Of a stretch of 64,000 nt of DNA, positions 1,370 to 27,445 are shown in pieces. Origin of the DNA: Dactylellina haptotyla (taxonomy: Eukaryota; Ascomycota; Orbiliomycetes; Orbiliales; Orbiliaceae); assembly GCA_031310005.1 (NCBI GenBank), contig CM062380.1, positions 2,852,001 to 2,916,000 of the forward strand. Reading direction: 5' to 3'. The position numbers and the translations under genes are program-made. Below the pieces are notes generated by a model. That model saw only the letters and a program-made list of their open reading frames with translations. It was not told the DNA's origin and did not search any database. How positions within the stretch are numbered: position 1 is the first letter of the stretch; each line of letters begins with the position of its first letter.

Positions 1370-2329
1370 GATCATGGAGGAGAAGGGACTCCTGTTTGAC
1401 TCTGAAGCCCCCCCGCCCACCTTTGCTGTGGCGGTAAACCGAATCCGATGGGGTCGGTGGCGCAACCGGGGCCGACCAGGCTCGAGAGTTTGCATGCGGC
1501 GTTCGCAAAGCTTATTGGCATCCAAGCCCAGAGCGCGAGACGAAAGATATCATACTTCAGGAGCGAATCATACGTTCTCTTCTTTGTTTCCTTCCTTCCT
1601 TCTTTTCCTATAGGATGATATCAGGGCATCGGGCGATACATCTGTATGCTTGCTGTGCGAGGATCCAGCGATATGTTGGCTGTCAGAGGACTGAAACATC
1701 CCCAAAGCTCCCCGGTGTTCTTCATGGAAGACGCCCGAAAGGCCAGCCAAACAAGCTCATCCCGACAGTTCCACGCCCGTGTTTGAAGACACATAGCATA
1801 TTCCAATGTTTCTCTTGCCTCATGGTTCGTCAAGGCAAGTTTGCATGCGAGATTTGCGACCTGGTTGGCAGCTTTCTGTTGGTTGGTTTCGGAGCGATGA
1901 GCTGCTCCAATGACGTTGCCGACGGTTCGAATTCGCCAACTAGGGCTTTAACTCGCATAAAACAACACACATCGCAGTGTTAACAGTTGTGACCCAAGGC
2001 GAAAAAAATATTTCGCAGAGAGAAGTGCTTTAGAAACCGAAGGGTAACGAGAGATGGGGGGACTTACGCTTCGAACCGCTTTGTATTATCCTAAACAAAA
2101 ATATACGAGTGGCATAGCTCTGATAGATAGGATAAAGGGGTTCCAATGGCGTTCCTAGGTTAGCTCCTGGTGGTAAAAAAGTAGAGATCTGAAATGCTCA
2201 AGTCCGGAGTCTAGGACAAAGGGAAACGAGCTCCTGATCACAGTTGGTTGAGTGAACCCTTGCATCTAGCTTATATAATCGCTTCAATTGATCCTCTGTA
2301 GATAATATTAACAGAGAGCGGGGAGAAGC

Positions 2330-2343
2330 AAAAAATTTAAAAA
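2330..2343 (-). terminator. Pol III terminator of tRNA-Phe
   Basis: Reading on the minus strand just past the tRNA 3' end, a run of five T (2343-2339) is followed by a run of six T (2335-2330). This is the usual Pol III termination signal, 6 nt after the discriminator base. Confidence 0.8.
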
Positions 2344-2384
2344 GATATTGCGGTTTGTGTGGATCGAACACACGACCTTCAGAT

Positions 2385-2401
2385 TTAATGATTGAAGTGG
2401 A
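2385..2401 (-). other. Canonical tRNA intron (17 nt)
   Basis: The segment TCCACTTCAATCATTAA sits immediately 3' of the base after the GAA anticodon. It contains TTCA, which can pair with the anticodon TGAA, as expected for a substrate of the tRNA splicing endonuclease. This is the standard position for eukaryotic nuclear tRNA introns. Confidence 0.9.
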
Positions 2402-2408
2402 CTTCAGT

Positions 2409-2468
2409 CTATTCGAGGGTTAGTACTATGAACTTGTGTGATAGTTAGGATGCGGTATCGCAACTGAC
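2409..2468 (-). other. Spliceosomal-type intron inside tRNA-Phe (60 nt)
   Basis: The insertion in the 5' strand of the anticodon stem reads GTCAGT at its start, AATAG at its end, and contains TACTAAC with the branch A 11 nt from the 3' end. Exon context is CAG before the donor. Its length equals the shortest introns of protein genes in this window (54-84 nt are common), and the donor hexamer is identical to that of eIF5B intron 1. It is not at the tRNA-endonuclease position. The insertion boundary could also be drawn one base to the left, but only this register gives GT..AG. That the spliceosome removes it is inference. Confidence 0.7.
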
Positions 2469-2498
2469 CTGACGCTCTCCCAACTGAGCTAAACCCGC

Positions 2499-3810: not shown

Positions 3811-6800
3811 ATGCATTTCTCTACAAGCATCGTATTGGCATTAGCCGCATGCCACGTTCTGGCGACTTCTCACGAAGGTCTGGAAATAGAGAAACGGGGT
3901 AATTATGGTCGTTGATCTAACTATTTAACTATAAGATGTCACTATCTAACACGAAATGTACGTCTACGTCGATCTTATATAGCTGATGGTGTATCAACGG
4001 TGACGAAATACATCACTCGAACAACTACCAGATACTCGAATACGTTGAGCAAGTGCACTCAAACAACCACTAGGTATTCTCAAACAAAGACGGTTACGGC
4101 ATCCGGGAAAACGGTGACAGGCTTGCCAATAAGTTTACCATGGATGACGATGACCCTTCCCAATAGGGTCATTACGATCAATGGGAAATTGTCTACTCTG
4201 CCGGCATCTATTCTCACAGCCGTGGGTCGTACCATTGTTGCCATTGGATCCAATCAAATAATGTTCCCGGGCTCTACTGTCCGTGCCGGAGGCTCAGAAA
4301 TAAGTTTGGGAGGCGGGGCTATAATCACATTAAGAGGTTCTATCATTGAGGATGGTGGCAAGAAATTCACACTACCTGGTGGAACTGTGGTGACAACTGT
4401 CACCAAGTCATGTTCGCCCGTGACGACAATAATCAAGAGTTCGACTACAATTGCAAAGACGACCACTTCAACTTTTACGCTTACGAAAACAACTACAGAA
4501 TTTGGTTATCCCATTACACTACCCAATTCAGTAATAACGCTTGGTGACAAAACTTTGACAAATGATGGTTCAATAATTGATCTACCTTCCTCGATAGTGA
4601 CTTTACTAGACACCCAAATCAGAGTATCTGGGAGTACAGTCTCACTCCCTCATGCCACTATCCTCGCCGCACAGTCCACGATATCATTGAAGGATCCAAA
4701 GATAACTTTGAAGGCAGGAGCCTCTTTGAAAGCGGGGGGGTCGGATATTATGTTACCTGGTGCACCATCAACCATCACGATCAGCGGGGCTGAAACGACT
4801 GTAACTTTACCTGGCGAAGTATCTACGAGAATTGTGACTACTGTCGAATCTGGTAGCATCGTTACAATTACTACAACCGCACCAGGTGGAACATCCACTA
4901 TCCTATCAACGATAACAGGGCCTACAATTACGATTACGAAAAGTGGACTACCAGGAACCAATACTACTATTGTCATCACAAGATACCGCACTGTTACTTC
5001 AGTACTTACGGCGGCGGGTACTGTTGTGCGGCTTACAATCACCCAATCCACTACCATAACACCATCGACTACTCTGACATTTGGTGCAAACGTATTGACA
5101 CTCGAGAGCGATGTCATTACAAATGCCGGCTCGACCATCACACTCCCAGATACAGTAGTTACGATGCCTACGTCTGTGGTCGGCGCCTCTGGAAATGTCA
5201 TAACACTACTCCAGTTACGATCATCACCAGTAATCTCAGCAGCAGGAATTCCGATACCCTTAGAGGACACTGAGATCACATTTCCTGGAAGCGCTCCACG
5301 GATAACAGGCAACGGTACTACCGTGGTGCTTCCCGGATTTACATCTATTATTCCGGGTCCACGAGCAATGACCACGATTGTTCTCACGCCATCAACCTCG
5401 ACTGTGATTCTCACTGAAACTTTGGCTACAACGGCCACTATGACTTCACTTGTAACAACTACTGTGATCTCTGTTACTACGACTCCTCTCACAGATTTCA
5501 TCACGTCCACGTCCACTATCACATCCGTAACTACTGTGATGGCTCTGGGCACAATTACACTTACAGACTCTACTACTATAATTTCGCCAACTACGGTAGT
5601 AGATTTGACTACGATCATAGAATCGACTACCGTCACTACTTCGGCTACCTTGACCGAGTCAACTACAGTAACCGAATCAACTACAGTGACCGAATCAGCT
5701 ACTGTAACGGAATCAACCACTCTGACAAAATCGACTACTTTAATAGAACCAACTACTCTGACACAATCGACTACCCTGACAGAATCGACTACCCTGACAG
5801 AATCGACTACTCTGACACAATCGACTACTCTGACACAATCGACTACTCTAATAGAATCAACTACAATAACGGATTCGACTACCATCACGGATTCGACTAC
5901 CATTACGGATTCAACTACCATTACGGATTCAACTACCATCACGGATTCAACTACAATAACAGACTCAACCACGATAACGGATTCAACAACTATTACAGCT
6001 TCAACCACAATAACGGACTCGACTACCCTCACAGAATCAACTACGATAACTGAGCCTACCACCATAACCGACCTAACTACTTTGACTGAATCAACGACGA
6101 TAACTCAGTCGACAACGCTCACTGACACAGCTTCAACATGCTCAGGGCCATGCACTACGTACACGCCCAGGTTCTTGGGTTGCTATTATCGGGGCACACA
6201 TACACCTTTCGCAGAAGACGGCATGACTAATGCTGCAATGACTAACACGATGTGTAAGGATTATTGTTTTGGCAAACATTGGACATTTGCTTCTGTCGAG
6301 TCCACGTAAGTCTTTCTATCACTATGACCACAGAATCAGTTAAATATCAGCTGTAGCTAACTAATTTGCCCGAAACAGTGTATGTTCTTGCGGAAATAGC
6401 TTCGCAGACCCTCCCCAAGCTGGGTCCAGTGGAGGCAACTGTAATAATCCATGTGCCGGAAATTCTGGGCAAATCTGTGGTGGAAATCTGTACATTCTTG
6501 TTTGGGGTTGGACTCCTGATGATTACCCGGCGAGTGGTGGATGCTGTAGCGCCACAGTAACTGTGACAGAAACGCCCTCTACTACTACGAGCGCGCCGCC
6601 AGAGACGTCGACGGCATGTGACAATACGGGACTCCAAGTTGCCATATATGATTCGCCGTTTCCTTTCGATAGCACCACAAATTCCTATCCTGCCTTCGAC
6701 TTTTCGTTCTATCAAACAGCTCCACCATGGAATACCTCGATTGCACACTATTTAGGGAGCACCCAAGCGCAGCAGCAAGCATCGAATTATACGAATTACG

Positions 6801-8296
6801 GAATGTCTTCTCAGAACGGTCTCGTTTTCGTTCTTAACTTTCGCGGTTTTTTCAATTGTCCCATTAGCGGATCATATAATATCCGGTTGAACAACTTCGA
6901 TGACGTTGGCGCCCTGTGGCTAGGCCAGAACGCATATTTAGGATACACTGAATCAAACGCTGCTCTTGTTAGTAGGTATTCCGGCGGCACCGGGTCTCAA
7001 AACGTTCAGACTACTTTTACCTGTGTCGCCGGCCAATACTACCCGATAAGATTAATTTGGGGTAACAAGAGCGGATCGCGGTCGTACGACGTTGATATTC
7101 AAGGTCCGGATGGAAATTTCTACGTTACGACGCAGACGGATTCGCAGTATTTTTTCCAATATCCAACTTGTGATTCTTCTCAAGCATTCCCTAGCACATT
7201 TGGCCAAGAAGCTAGCAATTCTACTTGTACGTCCGGATCCGTTACAACTACAGCGACGGTTAGCTTCACCACAACTGAGACAGCTACACCATCTGGGCTT
7301 GTTGCGTTTACGGAAATCGGCTGCATGACCGATGCTGCGTCACCAAGAAGACTTTCAGCATCCAGCAGAACAGACAACGTCCAAACGATTGGCAGGTGTC
7401 TCGACTTCTGCTTCTCACAGGGCTACGAGTACGCTGGAGTGGAGAACGGATCGTAAGTCAAAAACTACTAATATTCCAGAAAATGATTGTGACTGACTGG
7501 CTAACTCATCTTTAGGCAATGTTGGTGCGATAATGTCTTGACGCCAGCGTACCCCAACGGTCTGGCGGGGGCTGCAAACTGTAACATTGTCTGCTCGGGA
7601 AGTGGGTCGCAGTTCTGCGGAGGCTCTTTCTTTATAAATGTCTACCAACGGGCAATAGCACCGACAGTGACGACAACTGCAACAGCTACCGCCACCCCAA
7701 CGACTGCGGTATTCGACAAATCATGCTCTAATTCAGGCCTAGATGTTCATTTATATAACAACCCGTACGTTAACTCGGTTACCGGATACCAGAATTACAA
7801 CGTGGAGGCCTTTAAGACCATGCAATCGTACGCGAATGGTATCACTTCCAAGATAGGTTTCCAGAACACGACCACACCGAATCTGGGAGGCACCAACCCC
7901 ACGAATCCCAGCCAGTTCACGTTGGTTCTGAAAGGATATTTTACAGTTACAAAAACTAGCACGTACTCGTTCAACCTTACTAACACCGACGACGGTCTTT
8001 GGTTGTGGGTTGGTGCGAAGGTGTACGCTGGCTGGAAAGCCTCAAATGCGGATATTATATCTATTTACGGCGGGGCACTAGGATCGAAGAACTTTCATTT
8101 TACGGCGGGGAGCTTCATACCGATCAGGATAATGTATGCGAACGGAGGAGGCACAGCTGGTAACTTTAATTTGACGGTGACGGATGCAGACGGGGAGACG
8201 TATGTTCAGCAAGATGTTGATTGTGAGAATATCGTCAGGTTCGCTTGCGATGACTCTGCTACTGTTTATCCTCTCCCTCCTGGCAGTGAGGTATAA
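3811..8296 (+). CDS. Secreted cell-wall adhesin with two WSC-PA14/GLEYA modules
   Basis: Exons 3811-3898, 3983-6305, 6379-7452 and 7516-8296 join in frame to 1421 residues. The start has a signal peptide (MHFSTSIVLALAACHVLA) followed by a KR site suggesting Kex2-type processing. Residues about 30-550 hold repeated strand-turn motifs with TLPG/ITL patterns in Thr-rich sequence, then 27 six-residue STTxTx units. The remainder is WSC (starts RFLGCYYRG), PA14/GLEYA-like, WSC (starts TEIGCMTDA), PA14/GLEYA-like. The second PA14 has NTDDGLWLWVG, typical of the calcium-binding lectin loop. WSC domains are thought to bind wall glucans and GLEYA domains bind glycans, so surface adhesion is likely. No C-terminal GPI signal or membrane helix is visible; wall attachment may be through WSC or the O-glycosylated stalk. 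Introns 2 and 3 split the two WSC domains at the same place and phase. Confidence 0.92.
5641..6126 (+). repeat. Coding minisatellite, 27 units of 18 bp
   Basis: In frame within the adhesin, 27 consecutive hexapeptides of pattern STT(I/L/V)T(D/E/Q) are encoded. Seven adjacent units encode exactly STTITD but use different codons, so the array is protein-level conserved rather than freshly copied DNA. It should form an extended, heavily O-glycosylated stalk that lifts the WSC-PA14 half away from the N-terminal region. Such arrays commonly change length between strains. Confidence 0.95.
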
Positions 8297-9695: not shown

Positions 9696-12600
9696 ATGGC
9701 GAAAGGAAAGAAAGGAAAGAAGGCTGCCGCCGCCGACGACGACTGGGAGAACGATGTCCCCACTACTGCTGAGGAACTCTTCCCTGTTGGCGAGCAGCTT
9801 CAAAATACCACCGGCTACAACAAGGAAGAAGGATCTCAAGATGCTGGACCTGCCGCTTCGACTGCTGATGATATCGCCGACGATATGGGCGGCGGCGGTG
9901 GCGGTCTTCTAGGCGCCATTCGGAAAAACAAGGCGAAGAAGGGTAAGGGCGGAAAGAAGAAGTTTGACGACGACGAAGACGTCGAGGCTGCTTTGGCCAA
10001 ATTGAACATGGAGGAGGAGCAGGAAGCTGCTGCTGGCTCCAAGGGCAAAGCGGCTGCTGAGAATGGAGATGCTGATGATGATGATGACGAAGATGGCGGT
10101 CGAGTCAAGTCAAAGAAAGAGAAGGAACGTGAGAAGAAGGAGAAGGAGAAACAAAGGAAGAAGGAACAGGTCAGTTATTCTCGACTTCTTATACCTTACT
10201 CTATCAGTTTACTGACATTTCATCTTTTCCCGTAGGCTGCTCGAAAGAAGGCTGGTGGAAGCGGTGGCGCTGCTGCCGCGGAACCTGCTAAGGCCGCTGC
10301 TCCTGTCGTGGAGAAAGTCGAGGATAAGCCCGCCCCTGCCGCCGCGGCGGAACCCGCCGGCAAGAAGAAGAAAGTCTCGGCTGCCGTCGCTGCTATCCAA
10401 CGCCAACAAGAGGCTCGAAGGAAGATCGAAGAAGAACAGCGTCGTGTTGAAGAGGACGCCCGCCGCGTCGCCGAAGAAGAAGAGGCAAAAATAGCAGAGG
10501 AAGAAAAGAAGAAGGATGAGGCTAAACTGCGAAAGAAGGAAAAGGAAAAGGAAAAGAGAGAGCAGCTCAAGAAGGAAGGAAAGTATATGACTCCTGCGCA
10601 GAAGGCCCAACAAAAGGCGAACCAGATGCGATTGCAGCAGATGGTTGATGCTGGCATGCAAATCGAAGGTCTTGCAGATTCCTCTGCTCCGGCGAAGAAG
10701 AAGCCAGTTTACGATAAGAAAAAGAAGAAGGGTGGCAAATCAGACAAAGATGCCGAGGGGGAACCAAATAATGCGGAAGAAATCGCAAAGCAGAAAGCGC
10801 TGGAGGAGAAACTCGCCGCTGAAAAAGCCGCCAAAGAAGAAGAAGAGCGTAAGGCTGCGGAAGCGGAAGCTGAGACTGAAGTTGATGGAGCGGGTCCGAA
10901 GGACGAGGAGGATGTTGCCGAGAGCTGGGAGGCCGCCGCCGTCGAATCGGATGATGATGTTAAGGAAGCTTGGGATATGGACACAGATGAGGACATGGAA
11001 ATCAAACAGGCGAAGAAGGAGGAGAAGGAAGAGAGAGAAAGGGAAGAAAAGATGCTCAAAGCGGCAGCGGAGAAAGCCGCTGCACAGAAAGCTGCTGCAG
11101 AGAAATCCAATGGTGTCAAAGGGGATGATGATGATTCTACGCCCGTCAAGAGGATATCTGCTGAGAGGAAGAAAGAGGCAGAGGAGCGACGGAAACGCCA
11201 GCACGAGGAAGCTTTGGCTGCCAGATCCAAAGACAACTTGCGTTCGCCGATTTGCTGTATTCTCGGTCACGTCGATACCGGTAAAACAAAGCTTCTCGAT
11301 AAAATTCGTCAAACGAACGTCCAAGAAGGTGAAGCAGGTGGTATCACTCAGCAGATCGGTGCAACGTACTTCCCTGTCGAAGCCATCAAGCAAAAGACTG
11401 AAGTTGTCAACCAAGATGGTTCTATCGAATTCAACATCCCCGGCTTGTTGGTCATTGACACACCTGGTCACGAGTCTTTCACCAATCTTCGAAGCAGAGG
11501 CAGCTCTCTCTGTAACATTGCTATTCTCGTCGTCGATATCATGCACGGCCTCGAACCGCAGACACTAGAATCCATCAGATTATTGCGTGACAGAAAGACC
11601 CCCTTCATCGTTGCCCTGAACAAAATCGATCGTTTGTACGGCTGGAAGGCAGTTCCCAATAACGGTTTCCAGGACTCTCTTTCCAAACAAACCAAGGCCG
11701 TTCAGAACGAATTCAAAGACAGACTGACGCAAACTAAGCTCGCCTTCGCCGAGCAAAGTCTCAATGCCGAGCTCTTCTGGGAGAACAAGAACATGGGTCG
11801 ATACGTCTCCTTAGTTCCGACATCTGCCCATACTGGTGAGGGTATTCCAGACATGTTGAAACTTTTAGTCACCTTAACCCAGCAGCGTATGGCGGAAAAG
11901 CTCATGTACCTCTCCGAACTCGAGTGTACTGTTCTTGAAGTCAAGGTTATCGAAGGTCTCGGAACAACTATTGATGTTGTTCTATCTAATGGTGTCCTTC
12001 GAGAGGGTGATAGGATTGTACTTTGTGGTCTTAACGGACCTATATCGACCAACGTTAGAGCGTTGCTCACACCCCAGCCGCTCAAGGAACTTCGTGTCAA
12101 GGGTCAATACGTCCACCACAAAGAAGTCAAGGCCGCTCTCGGTGTCAAGATTGCTGCTAACGATCTCGAAAACGCTATCGCTGGTTCCAGATTGTTAGTC
12201 GTTGGCCCTGATGACGATGAGGAAGACCTTGAGGATGAGGTCATGAGCGATTTGGAGGGTTTGTTGAACAAGGTCGAGAAGTCTGGAAAGGGTGTCTGCG
12301 TCCAGGCGTCGACGCTCGGTTCTCTTGAAGCCTTGTTGGATTTCTTGAATGTCAGCAAGATCCCCGTTATGTCTATCAGCATCGGTCCGGTGTACAAACG
12401 TGATGTCATGAGGGCCGGTACCATGTTGGAAAAGAACAAGGAGTTCGCAGTCATGCTGTGTTTCGATGTTAAAGTCGACAAGGAAGCGCAGGCTTACGCT
12501 GATGAAGTCGGTGTTAAACTGTTTACCGCCGACATTATCTACCACTTGTTCGACTCCTTCACCGCGTACCAGAAGGAACTCCTCGAGCAGAAGAGAAAGG

Positions 12601-25972: not shown

Positions 25973-27445
25973 ATGACCGTCGATGCAGCCGAAGCAAACC
26001 TCAAGTCCCAGCAGGCGCCCCTCGCCAGCCAGCGAGCTGAGGACGAGAAGGTCAAGCTCCCCAACCGCCTCTTCCCCTTAGAGTACGGCAAGGCCTTTTC
26101 CCAATGGGTACGTTTTTTTCTCTCCCAAATTTCACTTTTGTCCTTTTTTTTTCATTTTTGGTCGTTTTCATGCATGCGTATACATGCATTGACTCGTAAT
26201 ATAACTCGCAATATCGTGAAATTACGAATGCATTGCTGATCGTCACAACAGTGGGCAGGTATCACCCCCGCGGCCGCCGAGGCCTCCGTTCTCTCCTTCC
26301 TCCCCTTCTACTCGGACTCCCTCAAGCCCGCCCTCGGCGCTGAGGCCGACAAGCCCGACCACACCTCCCCCCCTCTCGAGTCCTCCGACGACCGCGTCTG
26401 TGCCTCCACCGAGGTTCGCCTCTCCAACCCTAAGCACTACCTCAACGAGTTCTCCGTCACCCGCCCCGCCTCCGAGACCAAGAACAACCTCGTCATCCTC
26501 CACGGCTACGGAGCCGGTCTCGGCTTCTTCTACAAGAACTTTGACTCCCTATCGAAACGCCCGGGATGGTCCCTGTACGCCCTCGATCTCCTCGGCATGG
26601 GCCGTTCCGCCCGCCCCCACTTCAAGATCCACGCCCACGATCGCCTCGACAAGGTCCGCGAAGCTGAGTCCTTTTTCGTCGACTCCCTCGAAGACTGGCG
26701 CAAACAGCGCGGCCTCGAGAAATTCACCCTCATGGGCCACTCCCTCGGCGGATACCTCGCCACCTGCTACGCTCTCAAGTACCCCCAGCGTCTCGACAAG
26801 CTGATCCTCGTCTCCCCCGTCGGTATCCCGGAAGATCCCTGGGCGGTCCAAGCCCAGATGCCGGACCAGGAATCCGCCAACCAAGCTGCCACCCATCAGG
26901 CCGAGACCGCCGCCGCCGCCAATGTCGGTACCGGCGAGCACGCCCCTGCTCCCCCGCGGAGAAGGTACCCCGGCTGGTTCACCTACCTGTGGGACGCCAA
27001 CATCTCTCCCTTCTCCATCGTCAGATGGGGTGGTCCTCTCGGTCCTCGATTCGTTTCCGGCTGGACATCCCGCCGCTTCTCCTTCCTTCCGGAAGCCGAA
27101 GCCGAAGCCTTGCACATGTACTCCTACACCCTCTTCAAGCAGAAGGGGTCCGGTGAATACGCTCTCTCTTACCTCCTCGCCCCCGGCGCCTTCGCACGGG
27201 ATCCCCTGAAGAACAGATTTGCGCAGGTCGACAGGAACCTCGAGATCGTCTTCATGTACGGTGACAACGACTGGATGGATTCGAAAGCCGGCAAGGCGGC
27301 GTCTGAGGCGCTCAAGCAGGACGGACGCAAGAGCCGATTTAAGATCGTTTCCAGCGCGGGGCATCATTTGTATCTGGACAACTTCAACGAGTTTAACCAG
27401 TACATGGACGGCGTTCTGACGGAGACCGAGAGACAGAAGCAGTAA
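25973..27445 (+). CDS. Alpha/beta hydrolase, ABHD4/ABHD5/Cld1-type
   Basis: Exons 25973-26107 and 26252-27445 give 442 residues. The fold shows strand-turn HGYGAGLGFFYKN (oxyanion region), ALDLLGMGRSARP, the nucleophile elbow MGHSLGGYLA with Ser near residue 209, an acid in FMYGDNDWMD, and the His motif AGHHLYLD near 416-421. HHLYLD is the H-x4-D element of the ABHD4/5 group, linked with phospholipid acyl transfer or hydrolysis. Yeast relatives include Cld1, which deacylates mitochondrial cardiolipin, and Ict1. A signal peptide is absent. An insertion of about 60 residues with QAATHQAETAAAANVG sits in the cap region. Choice between cardiolipin lipase and other phospholipase roles cannot be made from sequence alone. 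Confidence 0.88.

What the first reader, a model, noticed from the sequence alone, without database searches (positions are those of the whole stretch)
2409..2468. A spliceosomal-type intron inside a tRNA-Phe gene
Seen directly: tRNA-Phe(GAA) is complete apart from two insertions. One is the normal 17-nt tRNA intron after position 37. The other is 60 nt between positions 30 and 31 in the anticodon stem. It has donor GTCAGT after CAG, a perfect TACTAAC with the branch A 11 nt from the end, and acceptor ATAG. Length, donor and branch spacing match mRNA introns in the same window; eIF5B intron 1 has the identical donor hexamer. Known precedent: the U6 snRNA of fission yeast, also a Pol III product, contains an mRNA-type intron, and spliceosomal introns occur in rRNA of some ascomycetes. 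I know of no accepted spliceosomal intron in a nuclear tRNA. If real, a Pol III pre-tRNA must meet both the spliceosome and the tRNA endonuclease, and the anticodon stem cannot form correctly before the first is gone. Origin by reverse splicing into a tRNA is a plausible inference.
Basis: partly seen in the sequence, partly recalled or inferred. Interest (0 to 1): 0.93.

Follow-up and report, generated by a model that had tools for sequence, protein, structure and literature searches.

The report
mRNA-type introns inside fungal tRNA genes
In a fungus related to Orbilia and Dactylella, several transfer-RNA genes are interrupted by introns of the kind normally found in messenger RNA, so making some tRNAs probably needs the spliceosome as well as the usual tRNA-cutting enzyme.

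Summary
On the minus strand, tRNA-Phe(GAA) carries a 60-nt insert between positions 30 and 31 (2409-2468) with GTCAGT, TACTAAC and AG, beside a normal 17-nt tRNA intron. Pattern searches give four tRNA-Phe genes: two lack the insert; one on another contig has a diverged 56-nt insert at the same site with the same donor, branch motif and spacing. Scans for CTAAC before a B box then found two tRNA-Gly(UCC) genes (33/34) and two tRNA-Leu(CAA) genes (30/31) with GT-AG inserts; no insert-free nuclear Gly(UCC) gene was found. A U6 gene here also has a GT-AG intron. In three paralog pairs the mature tRNA is identical while inserts differ (60-77% alike), so the tRNAs look selected and the inserts must be removed. 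Removing exactly GT...AG yields Phe, Phe, Gly, Gly, Leu, Leu. Best explanation: U2-type spliceosomal introns in Pol III pre-tRNAs. Excision by the tRNA endonuclease is a weaker rival, with some structural support in Phe only. RNA evidence and related fungi could not be tested, the tRNA census is incomplete, and I saw no published precedent in the open-access library searched.

The parts
2350..2498 (-). tRNA-Phe(GAA) gene (PheD) with two insertions
   Evidence: exon positions; with the GT-AG insert removed ARAGORN (intron fixed near 37/38) calls Phe(GAA) with a 17-nt intron, score 108.6, against Asn 102.0 with the insert
2469..2498 (-). 5' exon, tRNA positions 1-30
   Evidence: identical (30/30) to PheC; its 21-nt core matches exactly at four Phe genes
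2480..2491 (-). A box (Pol III internal promoter), intact
   Evidence: position; box consensus recalled
2409..2468 (-). 60-nt mRNA-type (GT-AG) intron between tRNA positions 30 and 31
   Evidence: GTCAGT, TACTAAC, ATAG; different insert at the same site in PheC
2463..2468 (-). 5' splice site GTCAGT (preceded by exon CAG)
   Evidence: sequence; same hexamer in the eIF5B intron candidate 10170-10235
2419..2425 (-). branch-site motif TACTAAC
   Evidence: inside 2417-2427; same motif and spacing in PheC
2409..2412 (-). 3' splice site ATAG
   Evidence: sequence
2402..2408 (-). exon, tRNA positions 31-37 with anticodon GAA
2385..2401 (-). canonical 17-nt tRNA intron at 37/38
   Evidence: ARAGORN after removal of the 60 nt; 16 of 17 identical to PheC by eye
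2350..2384 (-). 3' exon, tRNA positions 38-72
2361..2371 (-). B box (Pol III internal promoter), intact
   Evidence: position; box consensus recalled
2329..2348 (-). T-runs that could serve as Pol III terminator
   Evidence: TTTTT within 60 nt of the gene end
10170..10235 (+). comparison: eIF5B mRNA intron candidate with the same GTCAGT donor
   Evidence: ORF-joining candidate, sequence

Best explanation
The 60-nt insert is a U2-type spliceosomal intron inside a nuclear Pol III tRNA gene. The pre-tRNA meets the spliceosome in the nucleus, which removes 60 nt by lariat splicing and restores the anticodon stem. The tRNA endonuclease and ligase then remove the 17-nt intron at 37/38. The same arrangement occurs in a second Phe gene and in two Leu(CAA) genes (two introns each), and in two Gly(UCC) genes (spliceosomal intron only). 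Shown: the sequences, positions, paralog conservation, and that exact removal gives normal tRNAs. Inferred: transcription by Pol III, removal by the spliceosome, and the order of the steps (spliceosome first, because the endonuclease is thought to measure from the folded tRNA body; PMC4090602 section 5).
For: (1) PheC, PheD, Gly1, Gly2, Leu1, Leu2 and U6 all have GTNNGT donors, CTAAC 11-18 nt before the end (branch A to end) and AG, at 56-78 nt. ORF-joined mRNA-intron candidates (GTNNG plus CTAAC) in 251.9 kb of held DNA number 32 against 3 in the reversed control, 50-102 nt. (2) PheC was found by exon, not by intron motifs, and still fits. (3) Paralogs: Phe exons 30/30 and, with the 17-nt intron, 59/60, insert 38/62; Gly 33/33 and 39/39, insert 49/64; Leu 30/30 and, with the canonical intron, 76/81, insert 49/81. 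(4) Removing exactly the GT-AG stretch changes fixed-intron ARAGORN calls from Asn, Asn, Tyr, Tyr, His, His (100.5-106.1) to Phe, Phe, Gly, Gly, Leu, Leu (108.6-113.6). (5) The only two Gly(UCC) 3' exons within 3 mismatches in the assembly both follow the insert. (6) U6 (L085) has a 67-nt GTAAGT...GCTAAC...ACAG intron joining its 5' stem-loop to CGATACAGAG. (7) The Gly insert allows only one register, and it is GT...AG (read).
Against: No RNA data. GTCAGT is a rare donor (1 of 169 candidates, 1 of 59 in control). PheC has an earlier AG 4 nt before the AG that fits the tRNA. In Phe the insert's TCAG can pair with exon CTGA as a 4-bp bulge-helix-bulge core. Two insert-free Phe genes exist. Gly and Leu genes were found by scanning for CTAAC, so that motif is not independent there, and the scans as a whole are not enriched over the backward-pattern control: 15 v 19, 12 v 33, 33 v 40, 22 v 41, 53 v 82; TACTAAC...AG itself gives 198 v 403. 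The case rests on individual genes. Absence of TTTT in all 7 inserts is weak: 17 of 25 mRNA candidates of 85 nt or less lack it too. The Gly inserts are still 77% alike, so less diverged than the others.
Confidence: 0.91

Rival explanations
1. The inserts are non-canonical tRNA introns cut by the tRNA endonuclease at a bulge-helix-bulge, as in archaea and red algae.
For: Eukaryotic endonuclease can cut BHB substrates and 30/31 is a known archaeal intron site (PMC4090602; passages, section 5). In PheC and PheD the 4-bp core TCAG/CTGA is complete; only 30 and 98 of 2000 shuffled inserts reach their total pairing. In Gly and Leu the outer helix is complete (4 of 4).
Against: In Phe the outer and inner helices are incomplete (2 and 3 of 4 in PheC, 2 and 2 in PheD). 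In Gly and Leu the core has 2 of 4 pairs and totals are ordinary among shuffles (553, 1416, 873 and 440 of 2000) (G-U counted as a pair). The model does not predict GT, AG, TACTAAC or fixed branch spacing. The Phe core arises because the donor repeats the preceding exon GTCAG.
Confidence: 0.05
2. The insert-bearing genes are dead copies or the inserts are assembly errors.
For: Two insert-free Phe genes exist. The 2014 review takes short D- or T-arm insertions in single gene copies as marks of pseudogenes (PMC4090602 section 5). Rfam's tRNA model does not reach its cut-off for PheD or E 0.01 for its locus L057, nor E 0.1 for L107.
Against: Six tRNA genes on four contigs (C1, C2, C6, C7), mature sequence identical within each pair while inserts differ, T-runs of 4 or more after all six; both Gly(UCC) genes found carry the insert.
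Confidence: 0.03
3. The long stretch is one extended canonical intron at 37/38 and the anticodons are different (for example Tyr(GUA) on the Gly body).
For: ARAGORN with a fixed intron does propose Asn(GTT), Tyr(GTA) and His(ATG) with 60-109 nt introns. No nuclear Tyr gene turned up among the loci examined, though that census is incomplete.
Against: Scores are lower in six of six than after GT-AG removal. The Gly body's acceptor stem nearly matches this genome's Gly(GCC) by eye, and no other nuclear Gly(UCC) gene was found. The Asn parse would need a loop without U33 (recalled rule).
Confidence: 0.01

Closest known systems
Spliceosomal intron in U6 snRNA (fission yeast and other fungi)
   Same: mRNA-type intron in a Pol III RNA; this genome's own U6 has one, with a B-box-like GTTCGAATCC inside. 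Tani and Ohshima 1989 and Canzler et al. 2016 were seen only as reference-list entries; the B box in the S. pombe intron is recalled.
   Different: Here the hosts are tRNAs, and the Phe and Leu genes also carry an endonuclease-type intron.
Introns in fungal U3 snoRNA genes; spliceosomal introns in lichen rRNA
   Same: Introns in structural RNAs (U3: PMC5832005, abstract and passages; that they are mRNA-type, and the rRNA case, are recalled).
   Different: Not tRNAs.
Canonical nuclear tRNA introns removed by the Sen endonuclease
   Same: Present near 37/38 in the same Phe and Leu genes and in many other tRNAs of this genome.
   Different: The new inserts lie at 30/31 and 33/34, are 56-78 nt and have GT-AG and branch motifs.
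Non-canonical introns of archaeal, Cyanidioschyzon and nucleomorph tRNAs
   Same: Introns away from 37/38 (archaeal 30/31 among them) and several per gene, including nucleomorph tRNA-Phe with two (PMC4090602).
   Different: The archaeal and red-algal ones are tied to a BHB, and how nucleomorph ones are spliced is stated as unknown; here the BHB is incomplete and splice-site motifs are present.

Membership tests
U2-type spliceosomal intron | GT donor extending to GTNNGT | tested here: met
   GTCAGT (Phe), GTAAGT (Gly), GTATGT (Leu): 6 of 6
U2-type spliceosomal intron | branch motif near CTAAC at a normal distance from AG | tested here: met
For Gly and Leu the motif was the search key, so only Phe is an independent test
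U2-type spliceosomal intron | AG acceptor and precise exon joining | tested here: met
   AG in 6 of 6; removal gives the expected tRNA in 6 of 6
U2-type spliceosomal intron | signals kept while the rest changes | tested here: met
   three paralog pairs: inserts 38/62, 49/64, 49/81; shuffled means 0.48-0.50
U2-type spliceosomal intron | excision through a lariat by the spliceosome | not testable with these tools
   needs RNA
tRNA endonuclease (Sen/BHB) intron | canonical 37/38 position | tested here: not met
   30/31 (Phe, Leu) and 33/34 (Gly); Phe and Leu have separate canonical introns
tRNA endonuclease (Sen/BHB) intron | bulge-helix-bulge at the borders | tested here: inconclusive
   Phe: core 4 of 4, flanking helices incomplete; Gly and Leu: core 2 of 4, outer helix 4 of 4
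group I / group II self-splicing intron | catalytic RNA core of hundreds of nt (recalled) | tested here: not met
   inserts are 56-78 nt; no Rfam match in the window at gathering scores
functional nuclear tRNA gene | tRNA fold after intron removal, A and B boxes, T-run terminator | tested here: met
   ARAGORN after removal, 6 of 6; T-runs after 6 of 6; boxes located for PheD only
functional nuclear tRNA gene | mature tRNA present in cells | not testable with these tools
   needs RNA

The most novel reading that the evidence does not exclude
In this fungus an entire essential isoacceptor, tRNA-Gly(UCC), and probably Leu(CAA), can be made only through the spliceosome, so decoding of GGA codons depends on pre-mRNA splicing, and several pre-tRNAs must pass through both the spliceosome and the tRNA endonuclease. 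That would couple the splicing and translation machineries directly.
Probability: 0.75. Interest if true: 0.97.

Novelty: new variant of a known kind. Interest (0 to 1): 0.94.

Why it matters
tRNA introns are taught as the property of one dedicated protein pathway. If some nuclear tRNAs carry spliceosomal introns, then the spliceosome works on short, uncapped, strongly folding Pol III transcripts, tRNA supply can be limited by splicing, and spliceosomal introns can settle in genes that have no reading frame. The genome offers internal controls (insert-free Phe genes, pairs of differing inserts) and makes intron gain, splice-site choice without an mRNA context, and the order of two splicing machines directly testable. 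A standard tRNA finder (ARAGORN) misnames most of these genes: Asn, Ile and His with a free intron position, Asn, Tyr and His with a fixed one, which may explain why such genes go unseen.

Tried and rejected
Canonical single-intron reading: lower ARAGORN scores in six of six. BHB excision: see rivals. Group I/II: inserts too short. Plain ARAGORN found no tRNA in the window, presumably because of the two insertions. TTTT absence as a Pol III mark: not significant (17 of 25 mRNA candidates of 85 nt or less lack TTTT too, 18 of all 32). The simple GT...CTAAC count over held DNA was too noisy (571 v 703 in the control; with TACTAAC 105 v 28, but some loci were chosen for TACTAAC), so I used ORF-joined candidates. 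Search elsewhere: 0 hits for the Phe form in viral contigs and 0 for the Gly form in prokaryote contigs, as expected; no fungal collection is on hand.

Scan coverage; 15 and 12 places, all 27 put through ARAGORN; only PheC and PheD have a tRNA at the match; 33 places, 22 examined (21 in regions fetched, one already held), giving Gly1, Gly2 and one Lys-like gene; 11 not examined; 22 places, all examined (20 fetched, 2 already held), giving Leu1, Leu2 and three Glu genes whose CTAAC lies in the D loop; 53 places, 5 examined (three fetched, two already held), giving one Lys gene with a canonical intron; 48 not examined; 16 Leu/Ser-type places, 13 examined. The tRNA family search scored 63 of 1538 candidates. 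The six genes are therefore a lower bound.

Full report
What is there. The window lies on contig C2 of a 39.8-Mb, 11-contig genome. The protein at 26597-27442 has its closest named relatives in Dactylella cylindrospora (86%), Dactylellina cionopaga (87%) and Orbilia ellipsospora (85%), with one unnamed protein at 88%; that these belong to the Orbiliomycetes is recalled. On the minus strand at 2350-2498 is a tRNA-Phe(GAA) gene with a 60-nt insert between tRNA positions 30 and 31 (2409-2468) and a 17-nt canonical intron at 37/38 (2385-2401). The insert reads GTCAGT ... TACTAAC ... ATAG with the branch A 11 nt from its end.

Independent copies. Two pattern searches of the genome agree on four nuclear tRNA-Phe genes. 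The 5'-half search lists 15 places within 3 mismatches, of which the 4 exact ones are Phe; the 3'-half search lists exactly 4. PheA and PheB (C2:1275203 and C2:1276326) have only a canonical 18-nt intron. PheC (C6:817055) carries a 56-nt insert at exactly the same site: GTCAGTT ... TACTAAC ... ACAG. PheC was found by its exon, so its splice motifs are a genuine test, and it passes.

More tRNA families. Scanning for CTAAC followed at tRNA-like distance by a B box turned up two tandem tRNA-Gly(UCC) genes at C2:406084-406218 and C2:406424-406555, with 63- and 60-nt GTAAGT...TTCTAAC...AG inserts between positions 33 and 34. It also found two tRNA-Leu(CAA) genes on C1 and C7 with 78- and 64-nt GTATGT...CTAAC...AG inserts at 30/31 plus a canonical intron of 30-31 nt. 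These scans are not enriched over their backward-pattern controls (15 v 19, 12 v 33, 33 v 40, 22 v 41, 53 v 82), so the finds stand on the individual genes. A 3'-exon search with up to 3 mismatches finds only those two Gly(UCC) genes; among the loci run through ARAGORN the only insert-free Gly(TCC) calls are on C11, probably the mitochondrial genome. A 5'-half search gives 16 Leu/Ser-type places within 2 mismatches; of the 13 examined only these two are Leu(CAA). A more diverged gene could have escaped.

U6. One U6 snRNA gene (C3:3497926, L085) shows its 5' stem-loop and ...TTTGAAA, then a 67-nt GTAAGT...GCTAAC...ACAG intron containing GTTCGAATCC (a B-box match), then CGATACAGAG.... This is the arrangement recalled from fission yeast. 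In this genome another RNA normally made by Pol III thus appears to be spliced by the spliceosome.

Are the genes alive? In each paralog pair the mature tRNA sequence is the same. Phe: 5' exon 30/30 and the 3' part with the 17-nt intron 59/60, the one difference lying in that intron by eye. Gly: 33/33 and 39/39. Leu: 30/30, and 76/81 for the part that includes the canonical intron, where the differences lie in that intron by eye. The GT-AG inserts align at 38/62, 49/64 and 49/81 (shuffled inserts average 0.48-0.50), so they are related but changed, Gly the least. Flanks align at 19/42 to 25/44 (5') and 29/62 to 34/66 (3'), without a shuffle control. Exons that stay identical while neighbours change are under selection, or under gene conversion limited to exons; either way the tRNA is in use and the insert has to go. 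What the inserts keep is the donor, the branch motif and AG.

Does removal make sense? With the intron fixed near 37/38, ARAGORN reads the six genes as Asn, Asn, Tyr, Tyr, His and His (100.5-106.1); after removal of exactly the GT-AG insert it reads Phe, Phe, Gly, Gly, Leu and Leu (108.6-113.6). With a free intron position it already reads Gly(TCC) correctly but PheD as Asn, PheC as Ile and Leu as His. Rfam's tRNA model finds PheC (42.7 bits), both Gly genes (48.8 and 49.1) and Leu2 (34.1), but not PheD or Leu1. In predicted folds the anticodon stem of Gly goes from mean pairing probability 0.00-0.01 with the insert to 0.86 without; for Phe from 0.01-0.02 to 0.24-0.25, a modest rise.

Chance and background. 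Of 200,000 mononucleotide shuffles per insert, 0 to 4 show GTNNG, a CTAAC in the right place and AG. GTCAGT is a rare donor: 1 of all 169 candidates, in the eIF5B-like gene, against 1 of 59 in the control.

The main rival. A eukaryotic tRNA endonuclease can act on bulge-helix-bulge substrates, and non-canonical introns exist in red algae and nucleomorphs (PMC4090602; passages, section 5). In both Phe genes the insert's TCAG can pair with exon CTGA as a 4-bp core, and the total pairing is reached by only 30 and 98 of 2000 shuffled inserts. I take this seriously. But in Phe the flanking helices are incomplete, in Gly and Leu the core has 2 of 4 pairs (their outer helix is complete) with totals common among shuffles (440-1416 of 2000), and nothing in that model calls for GT, AG or TACTAAC. 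The Phe core arises because the donor GTCAG repeats the preceding exon GTCAG.

Literature. Nine searches of the held open-access library ran. Several were capped: 30 of 249, 20 of 64, 25 of 53, 15 of 173 and 12 of 593 papers listed. From these listings and abstract starts I recognised no report of a spliceosomal intron in a nuclear tRNA, for explicit phrases, returned zero papers. Two reviews were checked by word search only: one has no 'spliceosom' (plus its section 5 read), the other an unrelated mention. Subscription papers and preprints are not covered, and Canzler et al. 2016 is not held.

Limits. No RNA evidence, no related fungal genomes, and an incomplete tRNA census. Pol III transcription, the order of the two splicing steps and the origin of the introns are inference.

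Noticed in passing
L085 1440-1600 (G000:C3 around 3497926): U6 snRNA gene with a 67-nt GT-AG intron that contains a tRNA-type B box (GTTCGAATCC) and has branch GCTAAC.
   Followed up: partly
L086 (G000:C1:6867785-6867885, minus): Second U6-like gene without that intron, with a different 5' region but an ACAGAG box and a T-run; function unknown.
   Followed up: no
G000:C11 (249,811 bases): Small tRNA-rich contig, probably a very large mitochondrial genome.
   Followed up: no
L109, L110, L111 and other tRNA loci: Many nuclear tRNAs in this genome have introns near 37/38, including isotypes such as Ala, Asn, Asp, Gly(GCC), Glu, Lys and Thr.
   Followed up: partly
L107, L108: Insert position 30/31 is shared by tRNA-Phe and tRNA-Leu(CAA), although the inserts show no obvious similarity; a preferred insertion site is possible.
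   Followed up: no
L012 (PheC insert): An earlier AG lies 4 nt before the AG that fits the tRNA, so 3' splice-site choice must skip it.
   Followed up: no
window 4000-6309 and 6563-8296, plus strand: Repeat-rich open frames that look like secreted surface proteins; not examined.
   Followed up: no
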